Part shown: positions 49,804 to 59,359 of the stretch, piece by piece
How positions within the stretch are numbered: position 1 is the first letter of the stretch
How the letters are laid out: each line of letters begins with the position of its first letter
IMG/VR virus record: IMGVR_UViG_3300010354_000080
Coordinates: 1 to 64,000 of that record
Source of the DNA: a virus
DNA: 64,000 nucleotides
Direction: 5' to 3' (one strand)
The notes under the pieces: model-generated
Databases searched by the model: none
The model's input: only the letters and a program-made list of their open reading frames with translations
Told to the model about the DNA's origin: nothing
Position numbers and translations under genes: made by a program

Positions 49804-51717
49804 ATGTCCCAGCCACAAGTCCCCATCTGGATGTCCAGAGAAGCCATCAGCACCCTGTCCAAGGGGTATCTGTATCAGGGGGAGACACCACGGGGGTTGT
49901 ACGAGCGTGTAGCCAATCAGGCAGCCAAACTACTAAACTATCCTGAGATCTCCCAGGACATCTTCGAGATGCTGTGGAAGGGGTACCTCGGACTCGCCAC
50001 TCCAGTGGCTAGTAATTTCGGAACCTCCCGTGGCTTGCCTATCAGCTGCTACTCTAATCACATCGCCGATTCGGTTCCTTCGATCTACTCCCACCTCAAG
50101 GAATCGGCCGCCCTCTCCCAGCATGGCGGTGGGGTTGGTACCTACTTCGGGGATATCCGTCCTGCCGGAGCACCAATCTCCTCGGGTGGTAAGAGTACCG
50201 GAGTGGTGCCGTGGATGAGACAGTTTGACCAGTGCGCGGCGGTAGTCTCCCAGGGTGGTGTTAGGAGAGGTAGCTTCGCTCTTTACCTCCCCATCGACCA
50301 CCCCGACCTCCCTGAGGTCCTACGCTCCAAGGACCACTCCCAGGGCGATCCACGTGATTTCATCGACAGCAATATCGCCGTTACGGTTACCGATGAGTGG
50401 GTGGAAAGTCTGCTCTCGGGTGATCGTGAGAAGCAGAAACTCTTCGGCGAGGTGCTCAAAGCGCGGCTTGTGTCCGGGTCTCCTTACATCGTGTTTGTAG
50501 ACAATGCCAACAGAGCCAATCCTGAATGCTATACTCAGCGTGGGCTAAGCGTCAAGCTTAGCAACCTCTGCTCGGAAATCTTCCTCCACACTGACGAGAA
50601 TCACACCTTCGTCTGTGTTCTCTCCTCGCTTAATCTATCGCGCTGGGAGGAGTGGAAGGACTGGACAGGCCCCGCAACTGGCAAAACCGCGCCGGAGCTG
50701 GCTGTGTACCTACTGGACGCGGTTGTTGAGGAGTTCTGCCATAAGGCCGATAGGATCACCTCGATGGGCAGAGCTGTTCGTTTTGCTCGCAAATCCCGGG
50801 CTCTTGGCCTGGGCACCATGGGCCTCCACGCTCTCTACCAGTCCAAACATCTCCCCTTCGCGTCCGACGGAGCACGTCAGCTCAACGCAGAAGTCCACAA
50901 GTTCATCAAGGAAAAAGCCATTAAAGCTTCGCGGGACATGGCCGCTACCTACGGCGAGCCAGAGTGGTGCCAGGGCACCGGCCTACGTCATACCCACCTC
51001 ATGGCCATCGCCCCCACCAAGTCCAACTCCGTAATCTGCGGAGCTGGGAGCGAGGGCATCGAGCCCATCGACGCCAACTACTACGTTGCCAAACAGGCCA
51101 AGGGTACCTTCGTCAGGAAGAATAAGTACCTTGTTGATTACCTGGAGAAGATCGGCCGTAACACCGACGAGACGTGGGAATCTATTCTGGAGTTCAGGGG
51201 ATCGGTGCAGCATCTTGACTTCCTGGATGCCGAGGCCAAAGACGTATTTAAGACTGCTCGTGAAGTCGATCAGTTCGAGATTATCCGCCAGGCCTCAGAC
51301 CGCCAGAAGTTCATCTGTCAGGGCCAGTCTATCAATCTCTTCGTCGATCCTGAGGCCACTCCAGAGTACCTCTTCAGGTTGCACCTCAGCGCCTGGAAGG
51401 GAGGACTCAAGTCCCTCTACTATCTTAAGAGCTCGTCATTGCTCGTTAAGAAGAAGAAACCAGGGGCGATCAAAGAGGCCAAAATTATTACCAAATCCGA
51501 TTGCCCATACTGCTCCATGGCCAAATCACTGCTCCGTAGCCAAGGCTGGACCATCAACGATGTGGATAGAGCGGACGTTCCCAACTCCGAGTGGGTGTGG
51601 AAGACCGTGCCTCAGATCTGGCTTAACGGCCAGCATGTGGGAGGTTACACCAATCTCTCCGAGAAGCTTGGTCAGGGCGAGAAAACATACGGGGAGTGCG
51701 CGGCCTGCGAGGGTTAA
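49804..51717 (+). CDS. nrdA: Ribonucleotide reductase alpha subunit with internal glutaredoxin domain
   Basis: 637 residues. Active-site Cys pair C82 (ISCYSN) and C271 (FVCVLSSLNLS), radical-site SNLCSE (N254, C256, E258) and the radical-path tyrosines LYYLK (Y539, Y540) are present. The N-terminus is about 140 residues shorter than E. coli NrdA, so no ATP-cone is seen. After Y540 a glutaredoxin domain follows (AKIITKSDCPYC, C567-C570, TVPQIWLNGQHVGG), and only then the C-terminal shuttle pair ECAAC (C632, C635). So the glutaredoxin sits between the core and its own reducible tail. It would supply dNTPs with NrdB. Confidence 0.9.
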   Translation: MSQPQVPIWMSREAISTLSKGYLYQGETPRGLYERVANQAAKLLNYPEISQDIFEMLWKGYLGLATPVASNFGTSRGLPISCYSNHIADSVPSIYSHLKESAALSQHGGGVGTYFGDIRPAGAPISSGGKSTGVVPWMRQFDQCAAVVSQGGVRRGSFALYLPIDHPDLPEVLRSKDHSQGDPRDFIDSNIAVTVTDEWVESLLSGDREKQKLFGEVLKARLVSGSPYIVFVDNANRANPECYTQRGLSVKLSNLCSEIFLHTDENHTFVCVLSSLNLSRWEEWKDWTGPATGKTAPELAVYLLDAVVEEFCHKADRITSMGRAVRFARKSRALGLGTMGLHALYQSKHLPFASDGARQLNAEVHKFIKEKAIKASRDMAATYGEPEWCQGTGLRHTHLMAIAPTKSNSVICGAGSEGIEPIDANYYVAKQAKGTFVRKNKYLVDYLEKIGRNTDETWESILEFRGSVQHLDFLDAEAKDVFKTAREVDQFEIIRQASDRQKFICQGQSINLFVDPEATPEYLFRLHLSAWKGGLKSLYYLKSSSLLVKKKKPGAIKEAKIITKSDCPYCSMAKSLLRSQGWTINDVDRADVPNSEWVWKTVPQIWLNGQHVGGYTNLSEKLGQGEKTYGECAACEG

Positions 51718-51719
51718 AA

Positions 51720-52289
51720 ATGAAAAAATTTTTACATCACAAAATACCTCAGAGTAGAGGGGGTGGGAACGAAACATGGAATTTGATAGAATTAAACGCT
51801 TATGAGCATGCGTATGAGCATGCTCTGGATTTTGTTTTATTTAGTTCTTCTCCGTCTTTTGATTGCAGACAACCCGGATGGAAACTACTTCCAGAAGATC
51901 TTAAAGAAGCAGTTAGAAAAGAAATTTCTAACAGGATGAAAGGTAACAAACTTGCTCAAGGGCGCGGAGAATCAAAAAGAGGGGCAAAAAATGGGATGTG
52001 GGGAAGGAAAGGCTCTCTTCATCCAGCTTTTGGTAGAAAAAGACCGCAAGAAGAACGTAATAGAATCTCTGAATCAAATAAGGGCCGCTTCTTTACAAAA
52101 GAGCATAGAAATAACATCTCTAAATCCAGAACTGGAACAAAAATGAGCGAAGAGTTCAAACTTAAAAGATCCAGAGATGCAACTGGCCGATTTTGGGTGA
52201 CAGATTTAGAAGGATGTGGTAGAATGCTAAAGAAGGGAACTCCTCTACCTCCAGGATATACTCTGGGGAGACCTAAAAAATCGCAGTAA
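51720..52289 (+). CDS. HNH endonuclease with NUMOD3 repeats
   Basis: 189 residues from ATG 51720; a Shine-Dalgarno is weak. N-terminus KKFLHHKIPQSRGGGNETWNLIELNAYEHAYEHAL has the His-His and Asn positions of an HNH core (H6, H7, H30 region). Then NGMWGRKGSLHPAFGRKRPQEE and FTKEHRNNISKSRTGT are NUMOD3-type helix repeats that bind the target DNA. The gene is AT-richer than nrdA on its left and is therefore likely mobile. Confidence 0.8.
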   Translation: MKKFLHHKIPQSRGGGNETWNLIELNAYEHAYEHALDFVLFSSSPSFDCRQPGWKLLPEDLKEAVRKEISNRMKGNKLAQGRGESKRGAKNGMWGRKGSLHPAFGRKRPQEERNRISESNKGRFFTKEHRNNISKSRTGTKMSEEFKLKRSRDATGRFWVTDLEGCGRMLKKGTPLPPGYTLGRPKKSQ

Positions 52290-52958: not shown

Positions 52959-53409
52959 GACCAGAGTACTTGTACTTAACGCCTCGTACGAACCCCTCCA
53001 TATCACAAGCTGGAAGAGAGCTATCATCCTCCTGCTGAAGGAGAAGGCGCTTGTAGTCTCAGCCAAAGTCATTCGCCTAACCGAGTACATCCGGATTCCG
53101 TTCGCGAGGATCAATTCCGTCAAACCATCACGGGCTCTCATCTATAAGAGAGACGGGCATAAGTGCCAGTACTGCGGAGCTACGAGAAGGCTAACTATCG
53201 ACCACGTGGTTCCGAGGAGTCGTGGTGGCGGGGACACATGGGAGAATATGGTGGTAGCCTGCTCATCATGTAATACAAAGAAGGGTGACACTCTTCTCGA
53301 GCAGACGGGGATGAAGTTGGCGAGAAAACCCTTCGCTCCAGCCAACCGATTCTTGCTGAGTCTTATCGACTCCGACTCTCCCGAGTGGCTTCAGTACGCA
53401 TTCGGTTAA
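52924..53409 (+). CDS. Cyanobacterial-type HNH endonuclease family protein
   Basis: 161 residues. LVLNASYEPLHITSWKRAIILLLKEKA (17-43) is typical of a cyanobacterial HNH family, followed by YKRDGHKCQYCG (C81, C84), LTIDHVVPRSRGGGDTWENMV (D93, H94) and ACSSCNTKKG (C113, C116), a complete Zn-bound HNH. In cyanobacteria these are stand-alone proteins of uncertain function. The gene lies between the zinc-ribbon gene and the riboswitch; its stop codon is embedded in the GGTTAAAG box. Confidence 0.85.
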   Translation: MVPENVKQIRPETRVLVLNASYEPLHITSWKRAIILLLKEKALVVSAKVIRLTEYIRIPFARINSVKPSRALIYKRDGHKCQYCGATRRLTIDHVVPRSRGGGDTWENMVVACSSCNTKKGDTLLEQTGMKLARKPFAPANRFLLSLIDSDSPEWLQYAFG

Positions 53410-53411
53410 AG
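53404..53411 (+). promoter_or_regulatory. Putative late promoter box, variant GGTTAAAG, for the riboswitch unit
   Basis: GGTTAAAG overlaps the HNH stop codon (TAA 53407-53409). The riboswitch P1 begins at about 53420, only 8-9 bases after the box, so a start site some 7 bases after the box would give an RNA beginning with the aptamer. This agrees with the box acting as a -10-like element. Confidence 0.5.
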
Positions 53412-53419
53412 ACACATAG

Positions 53420-53534
53420 ATCGTTCATCGGGGAAATATCTGTACTTCTCCGACGGAAGTAGGCCGACTCGGAACGTAGTCGTTCATTCTCTATTCGGAA
53501 ATAGAGAACGCAAAAGCCGACTGAAGGAACGCAC
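53420..53534 (+). promoter_or_regulatory. Glutamine riboswitch (glnA / Downstream-peptide type)
   Basis: Conserved elements in order: CGTTCATC (53422-53429), a hairpin ending in CTCCGA, the diagnostic GACGGAAGTAGG (53452-53463), an extra hairpin (TTCTCTATT with AATAGAGAA, 53487-53508), and CTGAAGGAACGC (53521-53532). CGTTC (53422-53426) pairs with GAACG (53527-53531) as P1. This matches my memory of the glutamine aptamers of cyanobacteria and cyanophages, which often precede short DUF4278-like peptides, as here. Regulation is inferred; no expression platform is resolved. Confidence 0.8.
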
Positions 53535-53565
53535 CAGTACCCTAACAAGTAACGGAGCAAACCTA

Positions 53566-53709
53566 ATGTCCAAAGTAGTTTACCGCGGTGTTGAGTATGA
53601 CACTGAAAAGCGTCTTCAGTACCAGCAACAGATGCAACAGCAACCACAGCAGTATAATGAGATCTACCGTGGTGTGAAGTTTGTAAAGAAAGAGGGGGAG
53701 AAGGAATGA
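53566..53709 (+). CDS. DUF4278-like small peptide
   Basis: 47 residues. Two copies of the Tyr-Arg-Gly-Val motif, VVYRGVEYD (4-12) and EIYRGVKFV (32-40), separated by a Gln-rich linker, match the cyanobacterial DUF4278 pattern (YRGVxY). The gene is controlled by the riboswitch upstream; the start is 32 bases after it. Related short peptides follow the Downstream-peptide RNA motif in cyanophages. Function unknown; a role in responding to nitrogen status is inferred from the riboswitch. Confidence 0.75.
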   Translation: MSKVVYRGVEYDTEKRLQYQQQMQQQPQQYNEIYRGVKFVKKEGEKE

Positions 53710-53804
53710 GATCCATCAACGTCCTCCAGCTCATCAAGGAGCAGAAGCAAAAACAAGATAGGCGCCACAAAGCGTCCATCGCCCACCTGATTCAATCCAG
53801 GTAG
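53706..53804 (+). CDS. Very small basic protein (32 aa)
   Basis: ATG overlaps the stop of the DUF4278-like gene (ATGA). The sequence (MRSINVLQLIKEQKQKQDRR, then HLIQSR) is a single basic amphipathic helix. Translational coupling and position before a terminator support a real gene. Function unknown. Confidence 0.5.
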   Translation: MRSINVLQLIKEQKQKQDRRHKASIAHLIQSR

Positions 53805-53814
53805 ATTAAAGCTC

Positions 53815-53841
53815 GGAGGGGAGGAATCTTCCCTCCTTTTT
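53815..53841 (+). terminator. Intrinsic terminator after the riboswitch operon
   Basis: GGAGGG (53815-53820) pairs with CCCTCC (53831-53836), followed by five T at 53837-53841. It closes the riboswitch-peptide transcript, just before the next gene. Confidence 0.85.
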
Positions 53842-53847
53842 AATGTT

Positions 53848-54414
53848 ATGAGTTTTTACTTTTCTTTTGGTAAGCAAAAGCCTTCTCAAAGGGAGACGGT
53901 GTTTCAAGCAGCGGTTCTCTGGACAATACTCGAGCCTCTTATCGACTGGGTGCTGGATTTTGTAAACCGTAAAGTACTTGCTAAAGTTGACGGTAAAGCG
54001 CTAAAAACCGTCTTCGACGAGTTGGATATCTTCTGGCTTAGAAACAACTCCTCCAGGGAGTACGACGAATCACAAGTCCGGCTCATCATCGCTATGATAG
54101 TAAGGGCTACAGCTGATGGCCAACTCACCCGCCAGGAACTACTCGCCATTGTAGACTTCATCCAGCGCAAGTGGGTACCTCAGGAAGCTCTGAAGAAGAC
54201 TTTTACGCAAACAGACGAGGTCATCGAGGCGAGGGTGGTGGCAACAGTTGACGAGGCCATAGAGCTTTATCAGAAGAAATACGAAGAAAGGCCACTAACC
54301 CCAGAGGAGTTTGTGGCCAGTACCGCGGAGATCATCTTCCACGAGCCGGACGGGAGCGAAGCTCAAGCCCTTCTCGGTGGGAGGATGCAGATTAAGAATA
54401 AGCTTATATACTGA
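53848..54414 (+). CDS. Hypothetical protein (188 aa)
   Basis: ATG 53848 lies 7 bases past a terminator, so its promoter may lie upstream or read-through may occur. The N-terminal 45 residues have hydrophobic stretches (AVLWTILEPLIDWVLDF) that may be a membrane-interacting helix. Then come helical charged segments (SREYDESQVRLIIAMIVRAT, LLAIVDFIQRKWV). The C-terminus includes KYEERPLTPEEF. No family recognised. It converges with the methyltransferase 4 bases on. Confidence 0.5.
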   Translation: MSFYFSFGKQKPSQRETVFQAAVLWTILEPLIDWVLDFVNRKVLAKVDGKALKTVFDELDIFWLRNNSSREYDESQVRLIIAMIVRATADGQLTRQELLAIVDFIQRKWVPQEALKKTFTQTDEVIEARVVATVDEAIELYQKKYEERPLTPEEFVASTAEIIFHEPDGSEAQALLGGRMQIKNKLIY

Positions 54415-54418
54415 GCGC

Positions 54419-55618
54419 TCATAGCGCCCAGATGGGCTTCATCGTGTCCTTGGAGGCAGTGTTGTTCTGGCGCAGAATCGCTCCATTGGGCCTATCCACC
54501 CACTCCCGATCGCCGTCGAGAGCCGAAACAATCTCCTCCACCCAGTCCCTAGCCGTGCACGCGGGCACGTTCTGACACACCACGTTGCTGTGCTTGGTGG
54601 GGATGGAGACTTTCGCCGCGTAGTCATCTGGGAAACCCATGAGCCCAAGGCCCTCTGCAACGGTGAGCCAGCGGTCCTCGTAGGGATGCATGAGGTACGG
54701 CAGCGACTTCCACATCAGGGACTGCGTCCTGAACCAGGCCAGTTTCATGCTTCCGTCCATGATGTTCTTCCCGGCCTTTTTCTTCTCAAGAGTGTAATTG
54801 AGCCAACGCTTAGCCTTCTCGTCTTTGATGACTCGGGCCGCCTCTTCCAACCATCCAGAGTCGTAGATAACATTCCAGGTGGAGGTCATGCGCTCCGAAG
54901 CCACCTTGGAGAGGATGTCCTGCTTGGTGTAGCCGGCGTACTTCTCCTCGATAAACTGCCATAGGGGATCGGCGCTCGGCGTACCCTTGGTATTCACGGG
55001 TTCCGACGGGGCGAATCTTCCCTCCTTGAGGAACTTATGGAAGGGCTTAAAGTCCCGCTTGATAGGAGCCAGTACGGGGACTTTGCTTCCCTGCCACAGG
55101 AAAAAGAACGATCTGGTCCGCTCCTGGGGTACGCCATGGTTGATCGAGGTGGTCTTAATCAGACTCATGGAGTAGTCGTACTTGGCCGCAAGAGCGTTGA
55201 TTCGTTCGGCAAACTCCTCTCCCATCTTCGAGTACAGAGCGGGAGCATTCTCCACCATGATGGCCTTGGGTTTGATCTTGGACATGGCAAACTCTGACGC
55301 GTGGTACATGTGCATGTTGCTAGGTGCCGAGCAACCACGTGGGTTGTTCACCTTGTCGCCAGAGGTGGTATTGGCCATGGAGAGACCAGCGCATGGCGGC
55401 AGGCAGGTTACAATATCTACGTACTTGGAGGGATAATTACCCTCATCGAGGTTATGGAAAGGTACTTTGTCGAAGTACTTCAGGCAGTACTGATCATTGG
55501 CACCGAAGCTATTGCTCCAGGACGCGATCCACTCGGGCTCCTTCTCCAGTGCCAGAGTCGCTCCTACGGTGCTGCCTCCAACAAGAGGGATGATGTGTCC
55601 GTGGGTGTAAGTGGTCAT
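54419..55618 (-). CDS. DNA cytosine-C5 methyltransferase
   Basis: 399 residues. Motif I region LVGGSTVGATLALE (12-25), motif IV PPCAGLS with catalytic C76, motif VI ENAP (E123, N124), motif VIII QERTRS (Q165, R167, R169), and motif X-like QNVPACTARDWVEEI near the C-terminus. A long variable target-recognition segment lies between. No cognate restriction enzyme is next to it, so it looks like a solitary phage methyltransferase that modifies the genome against host nucleases. The target sequence is not predictable. It is the only minus-strand gene in this part. Confidence 0.9.
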   Translation of the reverse strand: MTTYTHGHIIPLVGGSTVGATLALEKEPEWIASWSNSFGANDQYCLKYFDKVPFHNLDEGNYPSKYVDIVTCLPPCAGLSMANTTSGDKVNNPRGCSAPSNMHMYHASEFAMSKIKPKAIMVENAPALYSKMGEEFAERINALAAKYDYSMSLIKTTSINHGVPQERTRSFFFLWQGSKVPVLAPIKRDFKPFHKFLKEGRFAPSEPVNTKGTPSADPLWQFIEEKYAGYTKQDILSKVASERMTSTWNVIYDSGWLEEAARVIKDEKAKRWLNYTLEKKKAGKNIMDGSMKLAWFRTQSLMWKSLPYLMHPYEDRWLTVAEGLGLMGFPDDYAAKVSIPTKHSNVVCQNVPACTARDWVEEIVSALDGDREWVDRPNGAILRQNNTASKDTMKPIWAL

Positions 55619-58501: not shown

Positions 58502-58737
58502 TCGAACGTATCACAAAGCCCATCCGCTTCGATAAGGATGTGCCATGGCTCGTAGTAGCCCATGACGGAGAGAAATTCTTCGTCGCCAAGGAAGATGTAA
58601 TCGCGGAAGACCCCGAGATGGAGCTAGTGGAGATGGGTAGTCGCTCCCTGCTCCAGTGGGCCATGGAGTACGACTACCCGCTCCGCCGGTTCGTGAAGCT
58701 TCAACGGATCCTCGTTGAGAAGTATTTCGGAGCCTAG
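58498..58737 (+). CDS. Small hypothetical protein (79 aa)
   Basis: ATG overlaps the previous stop. Beta/alpha composition, acidic (PWLVVAHDGEKFFVAKEDVIAEDPEMELV), ending in a basic helix. No family found. Codon use is again C- and G-ending as in the core genes. It precedes an HNH gene by one base. Confidence 0.55.
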   Translation: MIERITKPIRFDKDVPWLVVAHDGEKFFVAKEDVIAEDPEMELVEMGSRSLLQWAMEYDYPLRRFVKLQRILVEKYFGA

Positions 58738-58738
58738 C

Positions 58739-59359
58739 GTGATTATCACGAATAAATACGAGAGGTGGTATTGGGCCCTCATGAATAGGGCTCTGTCCAG
58801 ACACGACATCTCTGAGCGTGTTGAGAAACACCACGTATTTCCTCAATGCGTTTACGGAAAAAATTCTTTCGTGGTTAAATTAACACGAAGAGAACATTAC
58901 GTTGCGCATCTGCTCCTTGCCAAGTTTTTAGGGAAGCAACACCCAAAACTATGGTTAGCGATAACTAGAATGAATAAGCCTAGCGTTTATAACTCTAGGC
59001 TATATTCCCTAGCTAGACAGAAAACTTCTGAATGGAGGTCTCTGAAAAACAGAACAGAGCTAGATTACTCTAGAGTGCTCCCACGGATTCATAGGAATAA
59101 TTCTCTGCTTCAGAATCGGCCTTGGAAAAATTTCAATGTAAAGAAAGATAACTTGATTTTCTGGAAGAAGGCCGATGTTGTATACGATTTGTACATCAAT
59201 AAAAAGTATCCAGATAAGCAGATGCATTCCTATATCTGCGGAAAGATTGACTTACCGGTGAGTAAGCTAAAGATACTTAGAAACATGATCAGATTGATCG
59301 ACAGTGGCTGGGTCCCTAGCCAGGATGAAGAGTGGTTACAGCTGACGCAATCCAGCTGA
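58739..59359 (+). CDS. HNH endonuclease, EHH/LTxREHYxAH family
   Basis: 206 residues from GTG 58739, one base after the preceding stop. VEKHHVFPQCVYGKNSFVVKLTRREHYVAHLLLAK carries H31, H32 and H53/H57, the core of a phage HNH group. The closely similar gene at 63445 shares the same block. It has a helical C-terminus with no NUMOD motif. AT-rich relative to the preceding genes, it sits just ahead of the thymidylate-synthase-fold gene. Confidence 0.8.
   Translation: MIITNKYERWYWALMNRALSRHDISERVEKHHVFPQCVYGKNSFVVKLTRREHYVAHLLLAKFLGKQHPKLWLAITRMNKPSVYNSRLYSLARQKTSEWRSLKNRTELDYSRVLPRIHRNNSLLQNRPWKNFNVKKDNLIFWKKADVVYDLYINKKYPDKQMHSYICGKIDLPVSKLKILRNMIRLIDSGWVPSQDEEWLQLTQSS

What the first reader, a model, noticed from the sequence alone, without database searches (positions are those of the whole stretch)
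53404..53804. Phage glutamine riboswitch controlling a two-peptide operon
The aptamer core (GACGGAAGTAGG, GAAGGAACGC and closing CGTTC/GAACG) precedes a DUF4278-like 47-aa peptide and a coupled 32-aa basic peptide, then a terminator. The late box places the transcript start at the aptamer edge. It suggests the phage senses host nitrogen status, possibly through glutamine. An extra hairpin (53487-53508) sits inside the aptamer.
Basis: partly seen in the sequence, partly recalled or inferred. Interest (0 to 1): 0.7.

Follow-up and report, generated by a model that had tools for sequence, protein, structure and literature searches.

The report
Interlocked double glutamine riboswitch in cyanophages
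A phage of cyanobacteria carries an RNA switch for the amino acid glutamine in which one complete sensor has a second, rearranged sensor built into one of its arms; the same design occurs in at least two lineages of cyanobacterial viruses, where small genes often sit inside the switch itself.

Summary
The glutamine (glnA, RF01739) aptamer, the two-peptide operon and the terminator are real; the late box is not. The element is neither one aptamer with a stray hairpin nor two ordinary tandem aptamers. Rfam reports two overlapping hits, but comparison of 179 distinct phage relatives shows one interlocked structure: an outer canonical aptamer (P1 53422-26/53527-31) whose P3 helix (53462-69/53515-22) leads into an inner, circularly permuted aptamer. 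The outer long-range pair is Watson-Crick in 179/179 (159 G-C, 20 C-G); the tandem pairing fails in most. In most relatives P2b, and in many also P2a, holds an open reading frame instead of a hairpin; the nested ORF2 stop codon falls at the same aptamer position in 110/113. Well-studied phages (P-SSM2, P-SSM4, P-HM1, Syn33) have this, as does S-TIM54, from the lineage nearest the window's phage, at the same site. 164/174 composites precede a DUF4278-like (YRG) peptide; 89% of upstream regions hold an NtcA box (3-4% expected; absent in the window). I found no prior report in the open-access library, which is not exhaustive. Glutamine binding and direction of control are inferred, not shown.

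The parts
53422..53426 (+). Outer P1, 5' strand (CGTTC)
   Evidence: Canonical glnA P1; pairs with 53527-53531 in the composite; invariant in 48/48. The choice of partner follows from the long-range pair and P3.
53429..53452 (+). P2a arm of the outer aptamer (stem 53429-53435 / 53446-53452); ORF1 occupies this arm in many relatives
   Evidence: The four pairs at the base of the stem covary in relatives; ORFs in the arm.
53453..53461 (+). Outer core ACGGAAGTA; G53456 makes the long-range pair with C53532
   Evidence: G-C in 159 and C-G in 20 of 179 relatives.
53462..53469 (+). Shared P3 helix, 5' strand (GGCCGACT)
   Evidence: Pairs with 53515-53522, with two C.A positions; covariation.
53472..53485 (+). 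Inner, capped P1 (GAACG-TAGT-CGTTC), the circularly permuted P1 of the inner aptamer
   Evidence: Invariant CGUUC/GAACG; reported as a terminator-like stem 53472-53485.
53487..53508 (+).
   Evidence: Stem covaries; hairpin and ORF alternate at this position.
53508..53513 (+). Inner core ACGCAA; C53511 is proposed to pair with G53479 in the linker
   Evidence: Inner long-range pair C-G 160, G-C 5, other 14 of 179; the window has a 4-nt linker and is one of the 14.
53515..53522 (+). Shared P3 helix, 3' strand (AGCCGACT)
   Evidence: As for 53462-53469.
53523..53532 (+). GAA junction, outer P1 3' strand (GAACG 53527-53531) and C53532 of the long-range pair
53554..53557 (+). Shine-Dalgarno-like GGAG, 8 nt before the ATG
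   Evidence: Read from the sequence.
53566..53709 (+). 47-aa DUF4278-like peptide with two YRG motifs
   Evidence: PHROG 5049 E 1.6e-12; PF14105 E 0.0015, below cut-off; homologues.
53706..53804 (+). 32-aa basic peptide, start overlapping the stop of the 47-aa ORF (likely translationally coupled)
   Evidence: Weak match to PHROG 545, E 0.0035; conserved second ORF in L004, L021, L078, L101.
53815..53841 (+). Intrinsic terminator of the operon
   Evidence: 9-bp stem with 6 GC, then TTTTT.

Best explanation
The element is an interlocked double glutamine-I riboswitch in the 5' leader of a two-peptide phage operon. The outer aptamer is canonical: CGUUC(53422) pairs with GAACG(53527), GUA and GAA flank P3, and G53456 pairs with C53532. 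Its P3 does not end in a loop but opens into an inner aptamer in permuted strand order: a capped P1 (GAACG-linker-CGUUC), then P2b, then ACGCAA, lacking the GUA and GAA of the outer junction. The fold is shown by comparison of relatives. That L-glutamine binds is inferred from the matching outer core of an experimentally validated family. Because no terminator lies between switch and genes and a Shine-Dalgarno follows close behind the aptamer, control is most likely translational. By homology with the characterised glutamine riboswitches, which are reported as ON switches, glutamine would raise synthesis of the DUF4278-like peptide and the coupled 32-aa peptide. The sign is not settled by the sequence. 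In relatives with nested ORFs the start codons lie in or next to the P2 stems, so folding of the aptamer should hinder their translation, and translating them should unfold the aptamer. That would give a reciprocal switch (inferred).
For: Rfam matches. In 179 distinct composites the outer long-range pair is 159 G-C plus 20 C-G with no exception, while the tandem alternative gives G-G in 140. On 48 selected diverse sequences: composite 91.5% of cells paired, 13 pairs with double changes, long-range pairs 100% and 91.7%; tandem rival 33% and 29% for those pairs. P3 variants in named phages keep complementarity: AGUCG/CGACU, AUUCG/CGAAU, AGCCGACA/UGCCGACU. Full composites: 109 of 119 viral half-pattern loci against 0 of 100 chance half-hits in bacterial and archaeal genomes. 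ORF2 frame: dN/dS 0.19-0.30, other frames closed, stop at one fixed aptamer position in 110/113. YRG peptide downstream in 164/174. S-TIM54 carries the composite at the syntenic site. Type-1 and type-2 glutamine riboswitches activate expression: PMC6316151.
Against: Nearest-neighbour folding does not choose the composite as minimum energy (window -37.1 unconstrained, -26.6 with the composite enforced); it does not model C.A pairs, the E-loop or long-range pairs, but this is not positive support. Shine-Dalgarno accessibility hardly changes between the two folds (0.26 and 0.31 in the window), so no expression platform was demonstrated. Both P1 helices are invariant and cannot discriminate on their own. 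Sequences in the covariation counts are related, so counts overstate independent events. The window's own inner long-range pair needs a bulged linker. Ligand binding untested.
Confidence: 0.8

Rival explanations
1. Two ordinary tandem glnA aptamers, each closing its own P1 and P3, as the two Rfam hits suggest.
For: Two overlapping RF01739 hits; tandem glnA RNAs are known (PMC2864571); true tandems of complete aptamers exist in other viral contigs.
Against: Copy a lacks GAA and copy b lacks GUA. The long-range pairs required by this model form in only 33% and 29% of sequences, against 100% and 91.7% in the composite, and G-G is found in 140/179. P3 covaries between copies, also across ORFs of about 140 nt.
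Confidence: 0.06
2. One glnA aptamer with an incidental hairpin insertion in P3; the inner part has no function of its own.
For: The outer core is complete and canonical; the inner unit lacks the GUA/GAA flanks; in many relatives the inner arm is simply replaced by an ORF.
Against: The inner CGUUC/GAACG is invariant in 48/48 and the inner long-range pair covaries, C-G 160 and G-C 5, which an idle insert would not need. The invariance is partly built in, because the search patterns required both motifs.
Confidence: 0.14
3. The nested ORFs of relatives are independent small genes that happen to lie between leftover halves of old riboswitches; only the last half regulates the DUF4278 gene.
For: ORFs are annotated as separate hypothetical genes in many phages; Rfam sees at most one half.
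Against: Base pairs covary across the ORFs; the stop codon of ORF2 sits in the aptamer GAA in 110/113 and start codons sit in or next to the P2 stems; hairpin and ORF alternate at one position.
Confidence: 0.05
4. The RNA is a glutamine-riboswitch relative whose ligand or use has changed (for example another metabolite, or a structural or protein-binding RNA).
For: The architecture is diverged, the family's affinity is low (mM in vitro, PMC6698751), and the window lacks both the NtcA box and the Shine-Dalgarno hairpin of many relatives.
Against: Outer core nucleotides reported to contact glutamine (P1 C:G pair, C58, G22; PMC6698751) have counterparts here; 164/174 composites precede DUF4278-like peptides, the same partner as in hosts.
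Confidence: 0.12

Closest known systems
Glutamine-I riboswitch (glnA motif, RF01739)
   Same: Outer aptamer: P1 CGUUC/GAACG, P2, GACGGAAGUA, P3, GAAGGAACG, long-range pair; DUF4278-like gene downstream.
   Different: P3 is open and carries a second, circularly permuted aptamer-like unit; in relatives the P2 arms hold genes.
Tandem glnA RNAs (noted in PMC2864571)
   Same: Two glutamine-aptamer units in one leader before one gene.
   Different: Units are interlocked through a shared P3 and a common outer P1, not arranged one after the other.
Glutamine-II riboswitch (Downstream-peptide motif, RF01704)
   Same: Inner core reads CGC as in type II, with C pairing a G behind GGAACG; small DUF4278-type ORF downstream in picocyanobacteria.
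   Different: No type-II pseudoknot seen; RF01704 score 19.7, below its cut-off of 33.
Phage-borne glutamine riboswitches (Melnitz ssrA, PMC9004378; S-CREM1 glnA, PMC9964418)
   Same: glnA RNA in a phage genome; S-CREM1 (L439) has the same composite with a hairpin in P2b.
   Different: Those reports describe a plain glnA element; the interlocked fold and nested ORFs are not described in the passages read.

Membership tests
Glutamine-I riboswitch (RF01739) | Covariance-model score at or above the gathering threshold | tested here: met
   36.4 bits against 35 at 53479-53535; the aligned copy mixes inner and outer parts, and 53420-53480 is below threshold.
Glutamine-I riboswitch (RF01739) | P1 CGUUC/GAACG, GACGGAAGUA and GAAGGAACG flanking P3, long-range G-C pair | tested here: met
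   Present in the outer aptamer of the window, supported by covariation.
Glutamine-I riboswitch (RF01739) | Short hairpin P3 | tested here: not met
   P3 leads into a 45-nt inner unit instead of a small loop; hence filed as a variant, not as an ordinary member.
Glutamine-I riboswitch (RF01739) | Selective L-glutamine binding | not testable with these tools
   Needs in-line probing, ITC or SHAPE.
Tandem glnA | Two complete aptamers, each self-contained | tested here: not met
   Tandem pairing formed in 33% and 29% of long-range cells, against 100% and 91.7% for the composite.
Glutamine-II riboswitch (RF01704) | Model score at or above threshold | tested here: not met
   19.7 against 33 bits.
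DUF4278 (PF14105) | Pfam gathering score | tested here: not met
   Window peptide 19.3 against 25.3 bits; the P-HM1 homologue passes at 28.8, and both match PHROG 5049.
T4-type late promoter | TATAAATA just upstream of the transcript start | tested here: not met
   No match at 53404-53421; matches in the window near chance.

The most novel reading that the evidence does not exclude
Cyanophages use a riboswitch that contains genes: one RNA fold with two interlocked glutamine sites whose P2 arms hold complete open reading frames, with start codons in or next to the arm stems and, for ORF2, the stop codon in the aptamer core. Glutamine-induced folding would then shut the nested genes while changing translation of the downstream DUF4278-type gene, a reciprocal switch layered under NtcA control. 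The window carries the compact form with hairpins in place of both nested genes.
Probability: 0.55. Interest if true: 0.92.

Novelty: new variant of a known kind. Interest (0 to 1): 0.83.

Why it matters
An aptamer interlocked with a permuted copy of itself, with protein-coding genes inside its helices in many relatives, would change how riboswitches are searched for: Rfam reports RF01739 in only 3 of 14 of the named loci searched, each barely above threshold. It also gives concrete, testable genes and an RNA for the open question of how cyanophages read host nitrogen status. NtcA sites in cyanophage genomes were reported in 2010 (PMC3037559), and here they lie upstream of 89% of the composites. 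The element is found in Kyanoviridae and in the S-TIM5 lineage, so it is either old or exchanged between phage lineages.

Tried and rejected
Tandem reading of the two Rfam hits: rejected by covariation. T4-type late box: not present. Thermodynamic prediction of the expression platform: uninformative; Shine-Dalgarno accessibility is about equal in both states, and the Shine-Dalgarno hairpin (CUCUUUA/UAAGGAG) seen in the other class B relatives printed is absent in the window. An OFF-switch reading (anti-Shine-Dalgarno competing with the aptamer 3' strand) was considered from the anatomy but pairs are too few to decide. Solved-structure search with the 32-aa peptide: nothing. Search for the half-pattern in 84,980 bacterial and archaeal genomes: 100 hits, by record titles none from named cyanobacteria, none a full composite; the C-core variant was not scanned. 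Literature searches combining riboswitch with cyanophage and open reading frame, and with nested ORF, found no description; only open-access papers are held, and the primary glutamine-riboswitch paper (PMC6212724) was not available. Whether the 32-aa peptide resembles the glutamine synthetase inactivating factors IF7/IF17 was not tested.

Full report
What was claimed. The motifs, ORFs and terminator are there. The box is not: TATAAATA-like matches occur about as often as chance in the window and none lies at the aptamer edge, and the local sequence AAAGACACATAGATC is unique.

Rfam result. RF01739 matches twice, at 53479-53535 (36.4 bits, cut-off 35) and at 53420-53480 (22.6-29.5 bits, below cut-off). 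Taken at face value this is a tandem. But the upstream copy lacks the GAA before GGAACG and the downstream copy lacks the GUA after its core, and relatives show the same two losses.

Comparative test of the fold. A pattern scan of viral contigs and two further scans gave more than a hundred relatives. The script extracted 179 distinct composites without conditioning on pairing. In the glutamine-I fold the base behind the 3' P1 strand pairs with a core base (PMC6698751). If the copies were tandem, core a should pair with the base behind copy a's own GGAACG; it gives G-G in 140 cases. If core a is closed by copy b's GGAACG, the pair is G-C in 159 and C-G in 20: no exception. The inner pair is C-G 160 and G-C 5, with 14 exceptions, all in 4-nt linkers that have a G at the third place; the window (TAGT) is one of them. 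P3 pairs between the copies: position 1 A-U/G-U/C-G, position 5 G-C/A-U/G-U, position 8 U-A/G-C/G-U, with two positions that are mostly C.A. On 48 diverse sequences the composite has 91.5% of cells paired and 13 pairs with changes on both sides, far above slid controls and above shuffles on most measures; the tandem model gives 33% and 29% for its long-range pairs. The 48 were picked by a greedy diversity rule from 111 distinct structural strings with 9-nt P3 strands, and the sequences are related, so these counts are not independent events. Named phages, chosen because they matched by BLAST, widen P3 variation: AGUCG/CGACU in Syn33, S-CAM8, S-ShM2, P-TIM40 and S-SSM4; AUUCG/CGAAU in S-TIM4 and P-RSM4; AGCCGACA/UGCCGACU in S-SSM7. 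The script found the full composite in 23 of 24 named loci and in the window; in S-H9-2 the 3' half has ACGCAC and was seen by eye only.

The resulting anatomy. Outer aptamer: P1 53422-26/53527-31, P2a 53429-35/53446-52, core 53453-61, P3 53462-69/53515-22, junction GAA, long-range G53456-C53532. Inner unit inside P3: capped P1 53472-76/53481-85, P2b 53488-95/53500-07, core ACGCAA 53508-13. The strand order of the inner unit is a circular permutation of the canonical one.

Genes inside the switch. In most relatives P2b is not a hairpin but an ORF of about 50-60 codons beginning in or next to the 5' P2b strand (for example CAUCUAUGG) and ending at UGA or UAA overlapping the aptamer junction; the stop is at the same position in 110 of 113. 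Most insert lengths differ by multiples of three, ORF2 dN/dS is 0.19-0.30 with the aptamer-bound codons removed, and other frames are closed. In 44 distinct cases P2a also holds an ORF of about 66-73 codons, with weaker coding constraint (dN/dS 0.53-0.70). Several marine phages have both, including P-HM1, P-HM2 and P-SSM4. ORF2 proteins of three of the four phages tested match PHROG 504 and one ORF1 protein matches PHROG 6471, both of unknown function; the freshwater ORF1 and ORF2 tested match nothing. S-PM2, P-TIM68, S-N03 and S-CREM1 have hairpin-length P2b arms, like the window.

Which phage this is. Tail and primase proteins of the window are nearest to S-TIM5-type phages (tail protein 36%, primase 59% identity), not to T4-like Kyanoviridae. 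S-TIM54 of that lineage has the composite at the syntenic site, after an HNH endonuclease and before a DNA methylase, with ORFs in both arms. The element is thus in at least two phage lineages.

Specificity. The half-pattern finds 100 places in 84,980 bacterial and archaeal genomes; by their record titles none is a named cyanobacterium, and none is a full composite. In the viral loci, 109 of 119 are. Only the G-core variant was scanned there. Of 14 phage loci searched with Rfam at gathering threshold, RF01739 is reported in three, at 35.1-35.6 bits, and RF01704 in one.

Genes downstream and upstream control. 164 of 174 composites precede a peptide with a YRG motif, the DUF4278 signature; the other ten precede helix peptides like the window's 32-aa one. 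In hosts, glutamine riboswitches also precede DUF4278 genes, including gifB for IF17, and activate expression (PMC6316151). GTAN8TAC, the NtcA consensus, lies within 110 nt upstream in 89% of 180 distinct regions against 3-4% in shuffles and random windows, and a TATAAT-like hexamer within 40 nt in 79%; the window has no NtcA box. NtcA sites in cyanophages were reported before (PMC3037559).

Mechanism. Shown by comparison: the interlocked fold and the placement of nested ORFs. Inferred: glutamine binding, translational control, ON direction by homology, and a reciprocal effect on nested ORFs. Energy folding neither finds the composite nor shows a change at the Shine-Dalgarno, so the expression platform stays open.

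Known or new. Phage glnA elements and tandem glnA are known. An interlocked, permuted double glutamine aptamer, and genes inside it, were not found in the papers available here; papers outside that library could contain it.

Noticed in passing
viral contigs (L003-L122): Ordinary glnA aptamers in viral contigs mostly precede tiny basic peptides of about 28-65 aa, of several unrelated-looking families.
   Followed up: partly
P2a and P2b of many composites, e.g. L131, L138, L234, L439, L451: A near-palindromic hairpin, TTCGCTATTYGCAAATAGCGAA, recurs interchangeably in P2a, P2b and inside longer P2 loops, as if a mobile hairpin.
   Followed up: no
L012, L135, L138, L125, L457: YRG (DUF4278-like) and NVLQ/NIIK helix modules occur as separate ORFs or fused in either order; PHROG 545 spans both.
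   Followed up: partly
L437:1938-2123, L440:820-1005: manA RNA (RF01745) lies close to the composite in P-RSM6 and P-SSM4.
   Followed up: no
window 53848-54414: 188-aa protein after the terminator with weak matches to DUF533 and PHROG 3316.
   Followed up: no
window 54419-55618 (-): C5 cytosine methylase (PF00145) on the opposite strand, syntenic with S-TIM54.
   Followed up: no
window 51696-52289 and 58715-59359: Two homing-endonuclease-like genes near the operon.
   Followed up: no
freshwater ORF1 in P2a, e.g. L187: ORF1 proteins start MTKALLLLAWVPLLS, resembling a signal or membrane segment; no Pfam or PHROG match.
   Followed up: no
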